Positions 34,551 through 39,951 of a DNA stretch of 64,000 nucleotides are shown here, piece by piece. Under the pieces are notes generated by a model. That model made no database searches and was not told where the DNA came from. It saw only the letters and a program-made list of their open reading frames with translations. The stretch lies in NCBI RefSeq assembly GCF_022808915.1, contig NZ_JAKZFS010000001.1:946644-1010643 (forward strand), written 5' to 3'. This DNA is from Fundidesulfovibrio terrae. Lineage in GTDB: Bacteria > Desulfobacterota > Desulfovibrionia > Desulfovibrionales > Desulfovibrionaceae. The translations under genes and the position numbers were made by a program. The first letter of the stretch is position 1, and each line of letters opens with the position of its first letter.

Positions 34551-34739
34551 GCCTTCGGCGGCCAGAGAGAACTTTTTGAAAAAAGTTCTCTCTGGACTCT
34601 CTCAAAAAACTTATAGCGGGCTTCGCGGCCGTGAGCGTTAACGCTCGCGGACGCGAAGCGGTAAGAGGGTCCAGGGAGACGGATGTCTCCCTGGCGGGTG
34701 CAGGGCAGAGCCCTGCTGGGGTCCGGGGCGAAGCCCCGG
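34551..34739 (+). repeat. Five-hairpin repeat block (variant copy 7 of the dispersed repeat plus further stems)
   Basis: Five stems follow each other. The first pairs CCAGAGAGAACTTTT with its perfect complement (34562-34595, 15 bp, loop TGAA). The second has GCTTCGCG/CGCGAAGC arms (34620-34659) around a palindrome. The third pairs CCAGGGAGAC with GTCTCCCTGG (34671-34694). The fourth is GCAGGGC-AGA-GCCCTGC (34700-34716). The fifth is CCGGGGC-GAA-GCCCCGG (34723-34739). The start, GCCTTCGGCGGCC, and the TATAGCGGGCTTCGCG segment match the dispersed repeat family. Confidence 0.9.
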
Positions 34740-34765
34740 CAAGCACGTATTTCCCCGGAGCATCC

Positions 34766-35461
34766 ATGCCTGCCGCTTTCGACCATCCCACCTGCGCCTT
34801 GTGCCCCTACGACTGGTCCGTGCGCTTCTGCCGCAACGCCAAGGGGAAGGCTCCGGCCAACTGCCCGTCCCTGCGCATGTCCGAGGAGTCCGGGAAGGCC
34901 CTCTCGGCGACAATCTCTCCGCAGAACCTGGAATTCGCGTACAACGCCTCCGCGCAGGAGTCCGAGTGCTACGGCGGGCGCGACGGCGGCTACGCGTCCG
35001 TCAGGCCGGTGAAGCCCCGCATCGTCGAGATCGTGGAATTCGCCCGCCGCATGGGGTATCGTCGCCTCGGGCTGGCGTTCTGCATCGGACTCCGCAAGGA
35101 AGGGGCCGTGGTGCACGAGATTTTTACGACCAACGGCTTCGAGACGGTGTCCGTGTCCTGCAAGGCTGGGGCCGTGTCCAAGTCGGAGATCGGCATCAAG
35201 CCCTGCGAACAGGTGGACCCCGGCGCGGTCCACGAGAGCATGTGCAACCCGGTGTTCCAGGCCGAGGCGCTGAACGCCTCGCGGACCGATTTCAACGTGC
35301 TGCTGGGGCTGTGCGTGGGGCACGATTCGCTTTTCATCAAGTACGCCGAAGCCCCCTGCACGGTGCTCGCCGTGAAGGACCGCCTGCTTGGGCACAACCC
35401 GCTTGCGGCGGTGCAGCAGTACGACGGCTACTACCGCTACCTGAAGCGGCCTCTGGAATAG
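34766..35461 (+). CDS. DUF1847 cysteine-rich protein
   Basis: The 231-residue protein matches the DUF1847 family, predicted metal-binding proteins of unknown function. Cysteine clusters are in CALCPYDW, RFCRN and ANCPSLR near the N-terminus, and more cysteines follow (AFCIGLR, SCKAGA, KPCEQ, SMCNP, GLCVGHDS, APCTVL), about eleven in all, which would fit metal or cluster binding. CGGAG precedes the ATG. A DUF1835 gene follows nine bases after its stop and then cysK, so a role in sulfur or metal handling is inferred, not shown. Confidence 0.85.
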   Translation: MPAAFDHPTCALCPYDWSVRFCRNAKGKAPANCPSLRMSEESGKALSATISPQNLEFAYNASAQESECYGGRDGGYASVRPVKPRIVEIVEFARRMGYRRLGLAFCIGLRKEGAVVHEIFTTNGFETVSVSCKAGAVSKSEIGIKPCEQVDPGAVHESMCNPVFQAEALNASRTDFNVLLGLCVGHDSLFIKYAEAPCTVLAVKDRLLGHNPLAAVQQYDGYYRYLKRPLE

Positions 35462-35469
35462 GTGGGCAT

Positions 35470-36411
35470 ATGCTGCACATAACCTGCGGCGACTTCGCGG
35501 CCGAAGAGCTCAGGCGCGCGGGAATGGCGGACGAGGTGCTCCCCTGGCGGGACGTGCTGCACGAAGGCCCCGTGCCCTCGGACGTGACCGGGCGCGAACT
35601 GCGGGAGATACGGGCGGATTTCATCGCCTCCTGCGGCTGGGGGGACTACGAGGAGGTCCTGGGCTCTTTGGATGAGCGCGACCGCCTGGTGGAACGATCG
35701 GCCGCGGACGGCGCGGTGCTGTGGTTCGAGGCGGACCTGTTCGACCAGCTCCAGATGCTGGAGGTGGTGTCGCTGCTTCGCGGGCTCGGGGTCGCGCCCG
35801 GGAGCATCCTCGCGTTTCGCGGCGCGGGGTTCTCGGGCCTGGACAGCGAGGGGCTGCTCAAGGCGCTTGAGCCCCTGGACGCCGCAACCATGCGCGCGGC
35901 GGACGAGGCCTGGCGGGCTTTCACGTCCCCCGATCCGTCCGGGCTGGAGAGGTTCGTTGCCGAGGGCGTCGAGGGGCTGCCGTATGTCGCCGAGGCCGTG
36001 GGCAGGCTCCTGGAGGAATACCCCGGCGTCGGAGACGGGCTTTCGCGCCTGGAGCGGGTGATGCTTGAGGCGGCCTCGTCCGGGCCTGTCAGCGGAGCGG
36101 CGCTTTTCAAGGCGGTCTCGCGCCAGGAGGAGCGCCCTTTTTTCGGGGACTGGTCCTGCTGGCTGATGGCGTCCCGGCTCATGTCCGGGCCCGCGCCCTT
36201 GCTGGCCGGTGACGAAGGGAATTTTCCGGACCGGATGGTCCGGCTGACCAAGGCCGGGGAGCGGACCCTCTCCGGCGGATCGGACTGGATGCGAACGGGC
36301 GGCCGGGGGCGCTGGATAGGCGGCGTCCGCCTGGACCAAGCCCAGGACTGGCGCTACGACCGCAATGCTGCAACCTTGGCCCGCCTTGACGGGCGTGGAG
36401 CGCGACAATGA
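35470..36411 (+). CDS. DUF1835-domain protein
   Basis: The 313-residue cytoplasmic protein opens [36 protein letters not shown], which matches the DUF1835 family of unknown function. Residues 60-110 keep the family's acidic pattern ([16 protein letters not shown]). The C-terminal half has no recognisable motif and ends in an Arg-rich tail. GGTGGG lies before the ATG. Its stop overlaps the cysK start (ATGA), so it is coupled to cysteine synthesis genes. What it does there is not known. Confidence 0.8.
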
Positions 36412-37340
36412 ACATCGCCTCGAACATGATCGAACTGGTGGGCAACACGCCCCTGGTGCGCCTGAACCGTATCGGCCGGGGCCTGGACGTGCAGCTGGTG
36501 GCCAAGCTGGAATCGGCCAACCCCTGCTTTTCCGTGAAGGACCGCATCGGCGCCAACATGATCCTGGACGCCGAGAAGCGCGGCCTGGTGGACAAGGACA
36601 CGGTGATCGTGGAGCCCACCAGCGGCAACACCGGCATCGGCCTGGCCTTCATGTGCGCGGTGCGCGGCTACAAGCTCATGCTGACCATGCCCGAATCCAT
36701 GAGCGTGGAGCGGCGCACGCTGCTCAAGGGCTTCGGCGCCAAGCTGGTGCTGACCGACGCGAAAAAGGGCATGAAGGGGGCCATCGAGAAAGCTCACGAG
36801 CTGGTTTCGGAGCTGCCCAAGGCTTTCATGCCCATGCAGTTCGCCAACCCGGCCAACCCGGAGATCCACCGCCTGACCACGGCCGAGGAGATCTGGCGCG
36901 ACACGGACGGCGCAGTGGACGTGTTCGTGGCGGGAGTGGGCACCGGGGGCACGCTTACCGGCGTGGCCCAGGTGCTCAAGCAGCGCAAGGCCGGGCTCAG
37001 GGCCGTGGCGGTTGAGCCCGACGCCTCGCCCGTGCTCTCCGGCGGCGAGCCCGGGCCGCACATGATCCAGGGCATCGGGGCCGGGTTCGTGCCCGAGGTG
37101 CTGGACCGCTCGCTCATCGACGAGGTGGTGCGCGTCACCAATGACGAGGCCCTGGCCATGGGCCGGCGGATGCTCCGCGAAGAGGGCATCCTGTGCGGCA
37201 TCTCGTCGGGTGCCAACTGCCACGCGGCGCTCGAGCTGGCCAAGCGGCCCCAGAACAAGGGAAAAATGATCGTTTTCATGGTCTGCGACACGGGCGAGCG
37301 TTACCTGAGCACGCCCCTGTTCACCGAGATGGAGGAATAA
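36408..37340 (+). CDS. cysK: Cysteine synthase A (O-acetylserine sulfhydrylase)
   Basis: This PLP enzyme makes cysteine from O-acetylserine and sulfide. The 310-residue length is typical. Motifs are [13 protein letters not shown], the PLP lysine in [18 protein letters not shown], and the phosphate-binding [20 protein letters not shown] lies near the C-terminus. It overlaps the DUF1835 stop and is followed after three bases by the serine acetyltransferase gene, so both steps are made together and may form the cysteine synthase complex. Confidence 0.97.
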
Positions 37341-37343
37341 GTC

Positions 37344-38270
37344 GTGAAGCACGAGCGTCATGCGCTGGCGGCCCTGACCCCGGAAAAAGACGTGATCGAC
37401 GACGTGGTGGGCAAGCTCTGCGCGCCGTCGTCGTACCAGGCGTTCGCCTGCCGCAAGCTCACCGATTCGCCCATGCCGTCCCTGGAGATCCTCTCCGAGG
37501 TGGTGGACCGCTTGAAGGCGGTGCTGTTCCCGGGGTACTACGGCGATTCCGAGGTCACTCCGGACACGTTGGCCTACCACACCGGCTGTAACCTGGACGT
37601 GGTGTTTCGCAAGCTGGCCGACCAGATCAAGCGCGGCTACTGCTTCGTGTGCGTGGGGCAGAACAAGGCCTGCACCGGCTGCGAGGACCAGGCCATGGAA
37701 AAGGCCACGGCGTTCTTGCGCTCCGTGCCGGACATCCGCGAGAAGCTGGTGCTGGACGTGCAGGCCGCCTATGAGGGCGACCCGGCCGCCAAGAGCCCGG
37801 GCGAAACCATCTTCTGCTATCCGAGCATCACCGCGCTCATCCACCAGCGCATCGCCCATGAGCTCCACGAGCTTGGCGTGGACATCATCCCGCGCATCAT
37901 CACGGAGATGGCCCACTCCGAGACGGGCATCGACATCCACCCCGGCGCGCGAATCGGCAAGGGGTTCTTCATCGACCATGGCACGGGCGTGGTCATCGGC
38001 GAGACCTGCATCATCGGCGACAACGTCCGGGTTTACCAGGGCGTGACCCTGGGGGCCAAGAGCTTCCCCAAGGACGAGAACGGCAATCCGGTCAAGGGCC
38101 TGGCGCGCCACCCCATCGTGGAGGACGACGTGACCATCTATTCCGGGGCCACGGTTCTCGGGCGCATCACGGTGGGCAAGGGCTCGGTGATCGGGGCCAA
38201 CGTGTGGGTCACGTCGGACGTTGCGCCGGGCTCCAGGGTGATGAAGGCCAAAGTCGTGGACAAAGGATGA
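37344..38270 (+). CDS. cysE: Serine O-acetyltransferase
   Basis: This enzyme makes O-acetylserine, the substrate of CysK. The 308-residue protein has a helical N-terminal domain (about 1-190) that is longer than that of E. coli CysE, followed by left-handed beta-helix repeats with HIPGAR-like DIHPGARIGKGFFIDHGTGVVIGE and VTLGAKSF. The helical part contains CFVCVGQNKACTGCEDQA, an unusual cluster of four cysteines. The GTG start has GGAGG at 8 bases. It follows cysK by three bases and precedes the PFKFB-like gene by four. Confidence 0.95.
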   Translation: MKHERHALAALTPEKDVIDDVVGKLCAPSSYQAFACRKLTDSPMPSLEILSEVVDRLKAVLFPGYYGDSEVTPDTLAYHTGCNLDVVFRKLADQIKRGYCFVCVGQNKACTGCEDQAMEKATAFLRSVPDIREKLVLDVQAAYEGDPAAKSPGETIFCYPSITALIHQRIAHELHELGVDIIPRIITEMAHSETGIDIHPGARIGKGFFIDHGTGVVIGETCIIGDNVRVYQGVTLGAKSFPKDENGNPVKGLARHPIVEDDVTIYSGATVLGRITVGKGSVIGANVWVTSDVAPGSRVMKAKVVDKG

Positions 38271-38274
38271 CCCC

Positions 38275-39495
38275 ATGGGAGCGACGAAGCTGGTCATAGC
38301 CATGGTCGGGCTGCCCGCCTCGGGCAAGTCCACAGTGGCTTCCAAGATCAGGCAGTGCCTGAGCGAGGAGGGCATAGAGGTCGCCGTCTTCAACAACGGC
38401 GACGTGCGGCGGGAGCTCTGCGGGGCCAGCGAGACCGCCTGCTCGGATTTCTACTCTCCGGACTACGCCGAGGGTGTGGCCCTGCGCGAAAAGATCGCTC
38501 GCATCAACATGGAGCGGGCCGCCGATTTCCTGCACGGCAAGGGAGAGGTGGCCGTGCTGGACGCCACCAACGTCTCCAGGCAGCGCCGCCAGGTCATCAA
38601 GAGCTTCTTCGTCGGCTATCCGATCTTCTTCGTTGAGTGCGTCAACGACGACCCTGAACTGGTCTCGGCCAGCATATCCCGCAAGATCGCCATGCCGGAT
38701 TTCGCCCATTTGACGCCGGAACAGGCCGAGGAGGGCTTCCGGGAGCGCATCCGCTACTACCGGGGCCTTTACGACCCTTTGGCGGACGAAGAGAACTTCG
38801 TGGTGCTGGACTCCCTGCACAAGCGCATCGAACGCGAGCGCGTGCAGGCCGTGCTGCCCCACTACCGCATCGTGCGCGACCTGCTGGTGTCCGACTGGGT
38901 GCAGAACCTCTACCTGGCGCGGCACGGAGAGACCGTCTTCAACCTGGAGATGCGCATCGGCGGAGACCCGGACCTGACCGCGCGGGGGCTCGTGCAGGCG
39001 CAGTCCTTGGCCTGGCACTTCAAGGAGACGCCGCTGCCCTACGTCTTCATCAGCACCAAAAAGCGCGCCCGGCAGATGGCCCAGCGCCTGTGCGACGGCC
39101 GCCAGGACTGCCGGGTGATCCCCCTGCACGAGTTCGACGAGATCGACGCGGGCGTGTGCGAGAACATGACCTACGACCAGATCGCCCGGGACATGCCCCA
39201 GGTTCACTCCGCGCGCACCCGCGACAAGTACAACTACATCTACCCCGGCGGCGAGGGCTACGCGACCCTCAAGGAGCGCGTGGAGCGCGGGGTCAAGAAG
39301 GCCCTGTACCTCTCGGGCAACGCCAAGCACATCATGATCATCGGCCACCAAGCCGTGAACCGGATGATCCTGTCCCACTTCCTCTACCGGCGCACCGAGG
39401 ATGTGCCCTACATCTACATCCCGCAGGACCGCTATTTCCACATCGTGGCCACCCAGTGGCGCAAGGTCTTCGAGCTGGTGAAATTCATGGGTTGA
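38275..39495 (+). CDS. Bifunctional 6-phosphofructo-2-kinase/fructose-2,6-bisphosphatase-like protein
   Basis: The 406-residue protein joins two domains in the order seen in eukaryotic PFKFB enzymes. The kinase half (about 1-210) has Walker A MVGLPASGKST, FNNGDVRREL, LDATNVSRQRR and VECVNDDPELV. The phosphatase half (about 215-406) has YLARHGETVFNLEMRIGGD, then NYIYPGGEGY and IIGHQAVNRMILSHFL, with the catalytic His in RHGE and the second His in GHQAV. In animals and plants this controls fructose-2,6-bisphosphate and so glycolysis. In bacteria the product is not established. The gene is four bases after cysE and a small membrane protein gene follows. Confidence 0.85.
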   Translation: MGATKLVIAMVGLPASGKSTVASKIRQCLSEEGIEVAVFNNGDVRRELCGASETACSDFYSPDYAEGVALREKIARINMERAADFLHGKGEVAVLDATNVSRQRRQVIKSFFVGYPIFFVECVNDDPELVSASISRKIAMPDFAHLTPEQAEEGFRERIRYYRGLYDPLADEENFVVLDSLHKRIERERVQAVLPHYRIVRDLLVSDWVQNLYLARHGETVFNLEMRIGGDPDLTARGLVQAQSLAWHFKETPLPYVFISTKKRARQMAQRLCDGRQDCRVIPLHEFDEIDAGVCENMTYDQIARDMPQVHSARTRDKYNYIYPGGEGYATLKERVERGVKKALYLSGNAKHIMIIGHQAVNRMILSHFLYRRTEDVPYIYIPQDRYFHIVATQWRKVFELVKFMG

Positions 39496-39555
39496 TCAAC
39501 CGGGCCCGGCATGCCATATGAATTGCAGGGGGCCGTTTCATCATCGGAGGACGAT

Positions 39556-39951
39556 ATGCTCGGATTGGAAAAGAGGGTTGATGCGATCAGGCAGATGCAA
39601 GGTGACGAGGGCGTTGAGCCCGAGGGGCCGGCACGGGCTTCGGCCAACATGGGCATCATGCTCGCGCTGGTGGCCATGCTGGTGGCGGTGGGCGTCTATT
39701 TCATGGTGGAGGGCAAGTACTCCGCCAAGATGAGCGCCTACGAGTCCCGCATTTCAGCCGTGGAAGCCAAGGCCGCCGAGGCCATGAACGCTCCCAAGGA
39801 GATGGCCCGCAAGGTCATCGTGGCCAACACCCTGGGCGAGGTTTCCCAAAAGGTGGACATGCTCAAGGGGCAGCTGGACGCCTCCTACCAGGAGCGCCTG
39901 GCCAGGATCGAACAGGACATCAAGTCCATGCAGCAGGATCTCGCCAAGTAG
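39556..39951 (+). CDS. Small membrane protein with C-terminal coiled coil
   Basis: I do not recognise a family. The 131-residue protein has a charged N-terminus (about 1-30), one transmembrane helix (MGIMLALVAMLVAVGVYFMV, about residues 32-51) and an alpha-helical, Ala/Lys/Glu-rich C-terminal half that should form a coiled coil (SRISAVEAKAAEAMN, EVSQKVDMLKGQLD, RLARIEQDIKSMQQDL). It is probably a bitopic membrane protein. The ATG has GGAGGA at 5 bases; a longer in-frame form has no such site. It ends the block that begins with DUF1847 and is followed by a strong terminator. Confidence 0.75.
   Translation: MLGLEKRVDAIRQMQGDEGVEPEGPARASANMGIMLALVAMLVAVGVYFMVEGKYSAKMSAYESRISAVEAKAAEAMNAPKEMARKVIVANTLGEVSQKVDMLKGQLDASYQERLARIEQDIKSMQQDLAK

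What the first reader, a model, noticed from the sequence alone, without database searches (positions are those of the whole stretch)
38275..39495. Bacterial protein with the full eukaryotic PFKFB (phosphofructo-2-kinase/fructose-2,6-bisphosphatase) layout
A P-loop kinase half and a histidine-phosphatase half occur in one chain in the same order as in animal and plant PFKFB, with matching local motifs: GLPASGKST, LDATNVSRQRR, RHGETVFN, IGGD, YPGGEGY and GHQAV. Fructose-2,6-bisphosphate control is regarded as a eukaryotic feature. Here the gene sits four bases after cysE in a cysteine-synthesis operon, hinting at a link between sulfur assimilation and sugar metabolism, or at a different bisphosphate substrate.
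Basis: partly seen in the sequence, partly recalled or inferred. Interest (0 to 1): 0.72.

Follow-up and report, generated by a model that had tools for sequence, protein, structure and literature searches.

The report
Bacterial PFKFB-type sugar-switch enzyme gene
This gene from a sulfate-reducing bacterium encodes what looks like a complete relative of the enzyme that animals and plants use to make and destroy the sugar signal fructose-2,6-bisphosphate; a related bacterium has been named in print before, and what the signal would do in such bacteria remains to be tested.

Summary
Confirmed. ORF 38275-39495 (+, 406 aa) is a full-length PFKFB-type protein: Pfam 6PF2K 5e-40 plus His_Phos_1 1.9e-34, collinear with PFKFB2 over residues 6-396 (E 2.3e-60). 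Twenty residues that I recall as catalytic or substrate-reading are identical in 126 of 126 bacterial sequences and human PFKFB2; ten ordinary histidine phosphatases from these genomes lack Y323 and Y329, and nine lack K318. Best reading: a bifunctional PFK-2/FBPase-2; activity untested. It is widespread: 32 of 59 relatives, 137 of 288 family genomes, at most 63 of 395 phylum genomes; and a paper citing Rider 2004 already excepts Desulfovibrio desulfuricans. cysE is a neighbour in only two genera of the loci scanned; malQ in 7 genomes of 4 genera. Lead: two genera carry a second phosphofructokinase reading GGVG for GGDG; all 19 carriers found have PFKFB; the seven put in a tree form one clade, so this may be one event. 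It could be a signal receptor like the dead half of eukaryotic PFK. Known kind, untested physiology.

The parts
38275..39495 (+). PFKFB-type gene: predicted 6-phosphofructo-2-kinase/fructose-2,6-bisphosphatase, 406 aa
38281..38796 (+). kinase half (residues 3-174), Pfam 6PF2K
   Evidence: E 5e-40
38308..38331 (+). P-loop GLPASGKS (residues 12-19); G12, L13, P14, G17, K18 in 126 of 126 sequences
38557..38571 (+). LDATN (residues 95-99); D96 in 126 of 126 sequences
38908..39423 (+). phosphatase half (residues 212-383), Pfam His_Phos_1
   Evidence: E 1.9e-34
38920..38931 (+). RHGE (residues 216-219); H217 is the expected phospho-histidine
   Evidence: role recalled
39139..39153 (+). EIDAG (residues 289-293); E289 the expected acid catalyst, 126 of 126
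   Evidence: role recalled
39214..39261 (+). RTRDK...YPGGEGY (residues 314-329): R314, K318, Y323, Y329 in 126 of 126; 0 of 10 generic phosphatases have Y323 or Y329, 9 of 10 have R314
39343..39363 (+). GHQAVNR (residues 357-363); second catalytic His H358 and R363, both 126 of 126
37344..38270 (+). cysE, serine O-acetyltransferase (EpsC-type model over its cut-off, TIGR01172 below it), four bases upstream
36408..37340 (+). cysK, cysteine synthase A
   Evidence: TIGR01139 over cut-off
35470..36411 (+). DUF1835 protein, overlaps the cysK start by four bases
39511..39951 (+). 146-aa ORF without Pfam match, 15 bases downstream; among the 131 loci scanned it is beside PFKFB only in the window's genus

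Best explanation
[quoted passage not shown] The kinase half moves a phosphate from ATP to O2 of fructose-6-phosphate; the phosphatase half removes it through a phospho-histidine (H217) with E289 as acid. The balance sets the level of fructose-2,6-bisphosphate, which most likely restrains the class I fructose-1,6-bisphosphatase and may activate a phosphofructokinase, switching between storage-sugar breakdown and sugar synthesis. Shown here: family membership, domain order, conservation of the residues I recall as catalytic and substrate-reading, presence of both candidate targets in the genome. Inferred from what is known of eukaryotic PFKFB: the activities, the substrate, the targets and the physiology.
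For: Full-length collinear match to PFKFB structures and both Pfam domains over cut-off. In 126 non-redundant bacterial sequences (read from 141 loci plus the window) K18, R45, R46, R71, D96, R105, K137, R158, Y162, R216, H217, N223, R264, E289, R314, K318, Y323, Y329, H358 and R363 never vary and equal human PFKFB2. Ten generic histidine phosphatases of these genomes keep the catalytic shell but have V, P or L at 323 and F at 329 (10 of 10), M, L, I or F at 318 (9 of 10; the tenth, L240, is diverged and doubtfully aligned), and only 1 of 10 has N at 223. Own genome: two PFK, one class I FBPase. Of 32 PFKFB-positive relatives 31 have a class I FBPase match (30 over the cut-off) and 28 a PFK. 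malQ lies directly upstream on the same strand in 7 genomes of 4 genera; class I FBPase lies 1.6-4.4 kb upstream, same strand, in 9 of 131 loci.
Against: No activity was measured and no usable structure model was obtained (pLDDT 37 without an alignment; the job with an alignment had not finished). The human Arg at window position 322 (recalled as R360) is V, I, A or T in most of the bacteria, and Q359 is Arg in 60 of 126 (Gln in the window), so the phosphatase may differ in affinity. R314 and R363 are shared by 9 and 10 of the 10 generic phosphatases and so do not discriminate. FBPase and PFK are also common in PFKFB-negative relatives (23 of 27 and 26 of 27), so co-occurrence does not single out a target. 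The nine FBPase loci have opposite-strand genes in between, so no shared operon. Neighbours vary widely.
Confidence: 0.85

Rival explanations
1. A PFKFB-fold enzyme that acts on another sugar phosphate, for instance one tied to cysteine or another biosynthetic product, with fructose-2,6-bisphosphate not its true product.
For: cysK/cysE adjacency in two genera, on either side; window position 322 differs from human; only about 35% identity to human PFKFB2.
Against: The fructose-6-phosphate contacts that I recall are invariant across 126 sequences, most of them from loci with no cys neighbour found.
Confidence: 0.1
2. One half is the main activity in vivo: chiefly a kinase or chiefly a phosphatase, as in some eukaryotic isoforms (recalled). 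Not exclusive with the best explanation.
For: Variation beside the P-loop (S16 here, R in 97 of 126) and at 322 and 359.
Against: Both catalytic sets are complete in 126 of 126 sequences.
Confidence: 0.25
3. A chance fusion of an AAA-type kinase and a cobalamin-type phosphatase, or a recent acquisition from a eukaryote.
For: Weaker AAA_33, KTI12 and cobC matches.
Against: Full-length PFKFB match; codon composition close to the neighbours'; the bacterial tree groups largely by taxon; no plasmid or phage record covers 80% of the query in one place.
Confidence: 0.04

Closest known systems
Mammalian PFKFB (PDB 5htk, 3bif, 1k6m, 2axn; species recalled)
   Same: Same two domains in the same order in one collinear alignment; identical residues at the twenty positions examined.
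   Different: About 35% identity; query 6-396 of 406 against chain 39-429 of 505, so without the N-terminal stretch of some 30 residues and the long C-terminal tail; GHQ for SHQ or CHQ; position 322 not Arg.
Desulfovibrio desulfuricans case (Rider 2004, as cited by PMC9721465)
   Same: Same bacterial group; the sentence seen names this species as the bacterial exception for fructose-2,6-bisphosphate.
   Different: The original is not held, so I do not know whether it reports a sequence, the enzyme or the metabolite.
L065 protein of genome G416 (same phylum)
   Same: Same domain order and the same residues at 216, 217, 223, 264, 289, 314, 318, 323, 329, 358, 363.
   Different: Eukaryote-like motifs (GLPARGKSY, FNVGAYRRE, FRYPGGESYRDL); groups with the two mammals, on long branches.
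CobC-type alpha-ribazole phosphatases
   Same: Same histidine-phosphatase family and RHG...H core.
   Different: Score below the cobC cut-off (91 against 162.9 bits); ten generic phosphatases of these genomes (not shown to be CobC) lack Y323 and Y329.

Membership tests
PFKFB (6-phosphofructo-2-kinase/fructose-2,6-bisphosphatase) | 6PF2K kinase domain followed by a histidine phosphatase domain in one chain | tested here: met
   PF01591 3-174, PF00300 212-383; collinear 6-396
PFKFB (6-phosphofructo-2-kinase/fructose-2,6-bisphosphatase) | kinase residues: P-loop Lys, DATN Asp, Arg/Lys set of the fructose-6-phosphate pocket | tested here: met
   K18, R45, R46, R71, D96, R105, K137, R158, Y162 in 126 of 126 and in human (roles recalled)
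PFKFB (6-phosphofructo-2-kinase/fructose-2,6-bisphosphatase) | phosphatase residues: phospho-His, Glu acid, second His, and Arg/Lys/Tyr that hold the C6 phosphate | tested here: met
   H217, E289, H358, R314, K318, Y329, R363 (roles recalled); the human Arg at 322 is absent here
PFKFB (6-phosphofructo-2-kinase/fructose-2,6-bisphosphatase) | makes and hydrolyses fructose-2,6-bisphosphate | not testable with these tools
   needs purified protein
PFKFB (6-phosphofructo-2-kinase/fructose-2,6-bisphosphatase) | three-dimensional fold as in PFKFB structures | tested here: inconclusive
   pLDDT 37, not usable; alignment-based job unfinished; no fold search run
CobC alpha-ribazole phosphatase | NCBIfam TIGR03162 cut-off | tested here: not met
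   91 bits against 162.9
Stand-alone AAA_33-type kinase | best match to AAA_33 rather than 6PF2K | tested here: not met
   42.6 against 137.6 bits

The most novel reading that the evidence does not exclude
Some sulfate reducers run a complete fructose-2,6-bisphosphate circuit with a receptor of their own: a second phosphofructokinase whose GGDG motif reads GGVG, so that it should no longer handle Mg-ATP while sugar-phosphate motifs are kept, senses the signal inside a mixed PFK oligomer. That would be the eukaryotic solution (C-terminal PFK half with the ATP pocket lost and the sugar pocket turned into the fructose-2,6-bisphosphate site) reached independently, as a separate gene.
Probability: 0.15. 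Interest if true: 0.8.

Novelty: new member of a known kind. Interest (0 to 1): 0.45.

Why it matters
A 2026 preprint still calls fructose-2,6-bisphosphate control of PFK eukaryote-specific (passage). A gene with all twenty recalled active-site residues, in about half of the family's held genomes (137 of 288), makes that statement directly testable in sulfate reducers, and bears on where the eukaryotic enzyme came from. The GGVG phosphofructokinase gives a concrete receptor to test.

Tried and rejected
Cysteine-synthesis role as the general meaning: rejected as general, because cysE/cysK were found beside PFKFB in only 2 genera among the 131 loci scanned (some loci are short and some genomes appear twice); kept as a local fact.

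Shared operon with class I FBPase: the nine loci have opposite-strand genes between, so only loose linkage.

Glycogen coupling by co-occurrence: glycogen synthase family PF08323 is over cut-off in 354 of 395 phylum genomes and therefore uninformative; the sampled PFKFB-positive genomes of genus g42 have only weak PF08323 matches (E 5e-9 to 5e-19), which speaks against a strict tie to glycogen.

Co-occurrence with PFK or class I FBPase: both are near-universal, uninformative.

Plasmid or phage carriage: 33 plasmid and 5 phage records match, none over 80% of the query in one place; the 10 plasmid rows listed and the 5 phage rows cover the phosphatase half only.

Upstream-neighbour Pfam tally: 39 of the 58 same-strand upstream neighbours were scanned (near-duplicates and short ORFs left out; in L052 I replaced the called ORF by the malQ ORF), so its 6 of 39 for malQ is biased upwards; I rely on the tblastn count. 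Downstream tally: 24 of 43, no dominant family. The ORF clustering includes antisense shadow ORFs.

Generic-phosphatase control: 15 stretches fetched, 5 gave no readable protein by my motif rule and were dropped, 10 counted.

First scan of species genomes with the single protein found nothing; the second, with alignment A1, found 234 relatives.

Structure: a job without alignment gave an unusable model; the job with alignment A4 had not finished after repeated collection (last), so no fold search was run.

Literature: eight searches of the open library, listings seen, passages read in four papers. Rider 2004 and Michels & Rigden 2006 are not held. I saw no report of an assay of a bacterial PFKFB in these; subscription journals are mostly missing.

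Full report
Observation. The ORF at 38275-39495 (+) is open for 406 codons. Pfam gives 6PF2K at residues 3-174 (5e-40) and His_Phos_1 at 212-383 (1.9e-34), both over cut-off. phmmer against PDB chains gives full-length PFKFB chains as the twelve best distinct sequences, best E 2.3e-60, one collinear stretch; the best CobC chain has E 1.5e-12 over the phosphatase half only. No NCBIfam model passes its cut-off. Four bases separate it from cysE, and its codon-position G+C is close to that of cysE and cysK.

Organism. The window's assembly is unnamed. Genome G001 of the same genus holds a contig of 273,654 bases, the length of the Fundidesulfovibrio agrisoli contig of locus L095; so I infer genus Fundidesulfovibrio, a sulfate-reducing deltaproteobacterium (the physiology is recalled).

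Distribution. Full-length relatives (E below 1e-100) occur in 32 of 59 relatives. 6PF2K over the cut-off: 137 of 288 genomes of the family, one of them a partial match (G762), and 63 of 395 of the phylum, of which the five weakest (27-35 bits) are probably other kinases. Of 294 genomes of the phylum of a Scalindua locus two are over the cut-off, one of them strong: the Scalindua genome from which the search started. So carriage is broad but patchy in this phylum and rare in the one other phylum sampled; further phyla were not sampled.

Active sites. From 141 loci I kept 125 non-redundant sequences of at least 370 aa plus the window (L157, 363 aa, the window's own copy and duplicates dropped). 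Twenty residues that I recall as catalytic or substrate-reading never vary and equal human PFKFB2. The roles are recalled from PFKFB literature, not from a call. As a control I fetched 15 histidine-phosphatase stretches from the window's genome and its relatives; ten gave a readable protein. They share R216, H217, R264 and R363 (10 of 10) and E289, R314 and H358 (9 of 10 each), so these do not discriminate; but 1 of 10 has N223, at 318 nine have M, L, I or F, at 323 none has Tyr and at 329 all have Phe. The tenth at 318, L240, is diverged with a gap at 314. In that alignment the human row was cut before the RHG motif; one search shows it intact. Differences from the mammalian enzyme: the human Arg at window position 322 is V, I, A or T in most bacteria, and Q359 is Arg in 60 of 126.

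Tree. With 71 rows (75% identity cut) the bacterial sequences group largely by taxon: Desulfovibrio-type, Desulfobulbus-type, Syntrophaceae/Smithella, Desulfobacteraceae. The one Scalindua row falls inside an eight-row group (SH-aLRT 99) with family f39 of the window's phylum, so that case looks like a transfer. L065 (G416) groups with the two mammals (SH-aLRT 100) apart from the other 68, but these are long branches and the tree is a quick one. With two mammals only and no outgroup, the direction between bacteria and eukaryotes is open.

Neighbourhood. In the 7 held genomes of the window's genus the order is cysK-cysE-PFKFB-146-aa ORF (window, L035-L039, L094; L095 is the same genome as L037). 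In genus g19, G024 has PFKFB-cysK-cysE and G855 has PFKFB-cysE, on the other side; in G856 none was found, but its contig ends soon after the gene. malQ lies directly upstream on the same strand (27-311 bases between the matches) in 7 genomes of 4 genera (g21 three, g9 two, g11, g289; 9 of 131 loci, two genomes being represented twice, which I infer from equal contig lengths and places). One of these malQ proteins, L136, was checked against Pfam and NCBIfam. Class I FBPase lies 1.6-4.4 kb upstream on the same strand in 9 loci, with opposite-strand genes between (one of them, L124, checked against Pfam). A 4-alpha-glucanotransferase neighbour fits storage-sugar use better than cysteine synthesis, but several malQ carriers are close in the tree, so this may be one event.

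Possible targets. The genome has one class I FBPase and two PF00365 phosphofructokinases. PFK L032 reads GGDG, which PMC12203962 gives as the mark of ATP-dependent enzymes; its PKTIDND is compatible, as the same paper notes for the T. brucei enzyme (passages). The second, L033, reads GGVG. I read 71 of the 77 PFK match rows (three fragments and three sub-cut-off rows left out): GGVG occurs in seven, which form one clade (SH-aLRT 99, quick tree); the Asp is present in 57 of 57 of the close GGDG set (seven distant PFKs left out) and Val in 7 of 7; one further position differs (Gly in 55 of 57, Cys in 7 of 7). The sugar-side motifs PKTxDND and MGR are kept in 7 of 7 and AEGAGQ in 6 of 7; an IDPSY pattern was found in only 3 of 7, but it fails in many of the others too (29 of 64 close PFKs have the three motifs tested together). 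A DNA pattern for this GGVG motif, without mismatches, found 20 of 288 family genomes (the reversed control pattern 2 of 288); 19 matches are PFKs: 6 of 7 genomes of the window's genus (the seventh is 66% complete) and 13 of 14 of g25; the twentieth, G033, is another protein. All 19 carry PFKFB, as do all 7 and all 14 genomes of the two genera. Other dead variants would escape this pattern. As the 19 are two genera, and the seven tested one clade, this is probably one evolutionary event, not a statistical proof. In eukaryotic PFK the C-terminal half lost its ATP pocket and its sugar pocket became the fructose-2,6-bisphosphate site (PMC12203962, passages): the parallel is the basis of the novel case. 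Most PFKFB-positive relatives have no GGVG paralogue, so it cannot be the general receptor.

What is known. [quoted passage not shown] PMC12873801 (passages) says that the regulation appears to be eukaryote-specific, citing Michels & Rigden 2006. Neither original is held. So a bacterial case is in print; I saw no assay of such a protein in the eight library searches made.

Verdict. A real PFKFB family member, most likely bifunctional, in a group of bacteria where one case was already noted. The unexpected parts are its spread and invariance, and the GGVG phosphofructokinase that may be its partner in two genera.

Noticed in passing
L033 (own genome G000:C2:618664-619581); L278-L283; L287-L305: Second phosphofructokinase with GGVG for GGDG in two genera, all 19 carriers found being PFKFB-positive.
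   Followed up: partly
L285:8525-9721 (genome G416), same gene as L065: A eukaryote-like PFKFB in a bacterial contig, with codon-position G+C like most ORFs around it; groups with mammals on long branches.
   Followed up: partly
window 34631-36411: A DUF1847 and a DUF1835 gene of unknown role sit between nifU-nifS and cysK-cysE on the same strand.
   Followed up: no
L142, L143, L144, L146, L149-L152 (Smithella and kin): PFKFB is followed on the same strand, within about 3.3 kb, by three conserved genes in 8 loci; in L152 they match AIRS (SelD-like), DHH and no Pfam family.
   Followed up: partly
L103, L107, L109, L113: Scalindua and Brocadiaceae (anammox) genomes carry the gene; the one Scalindua row in the tree is nested among deltaproteobacterial sequences.
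   Followed up: partly
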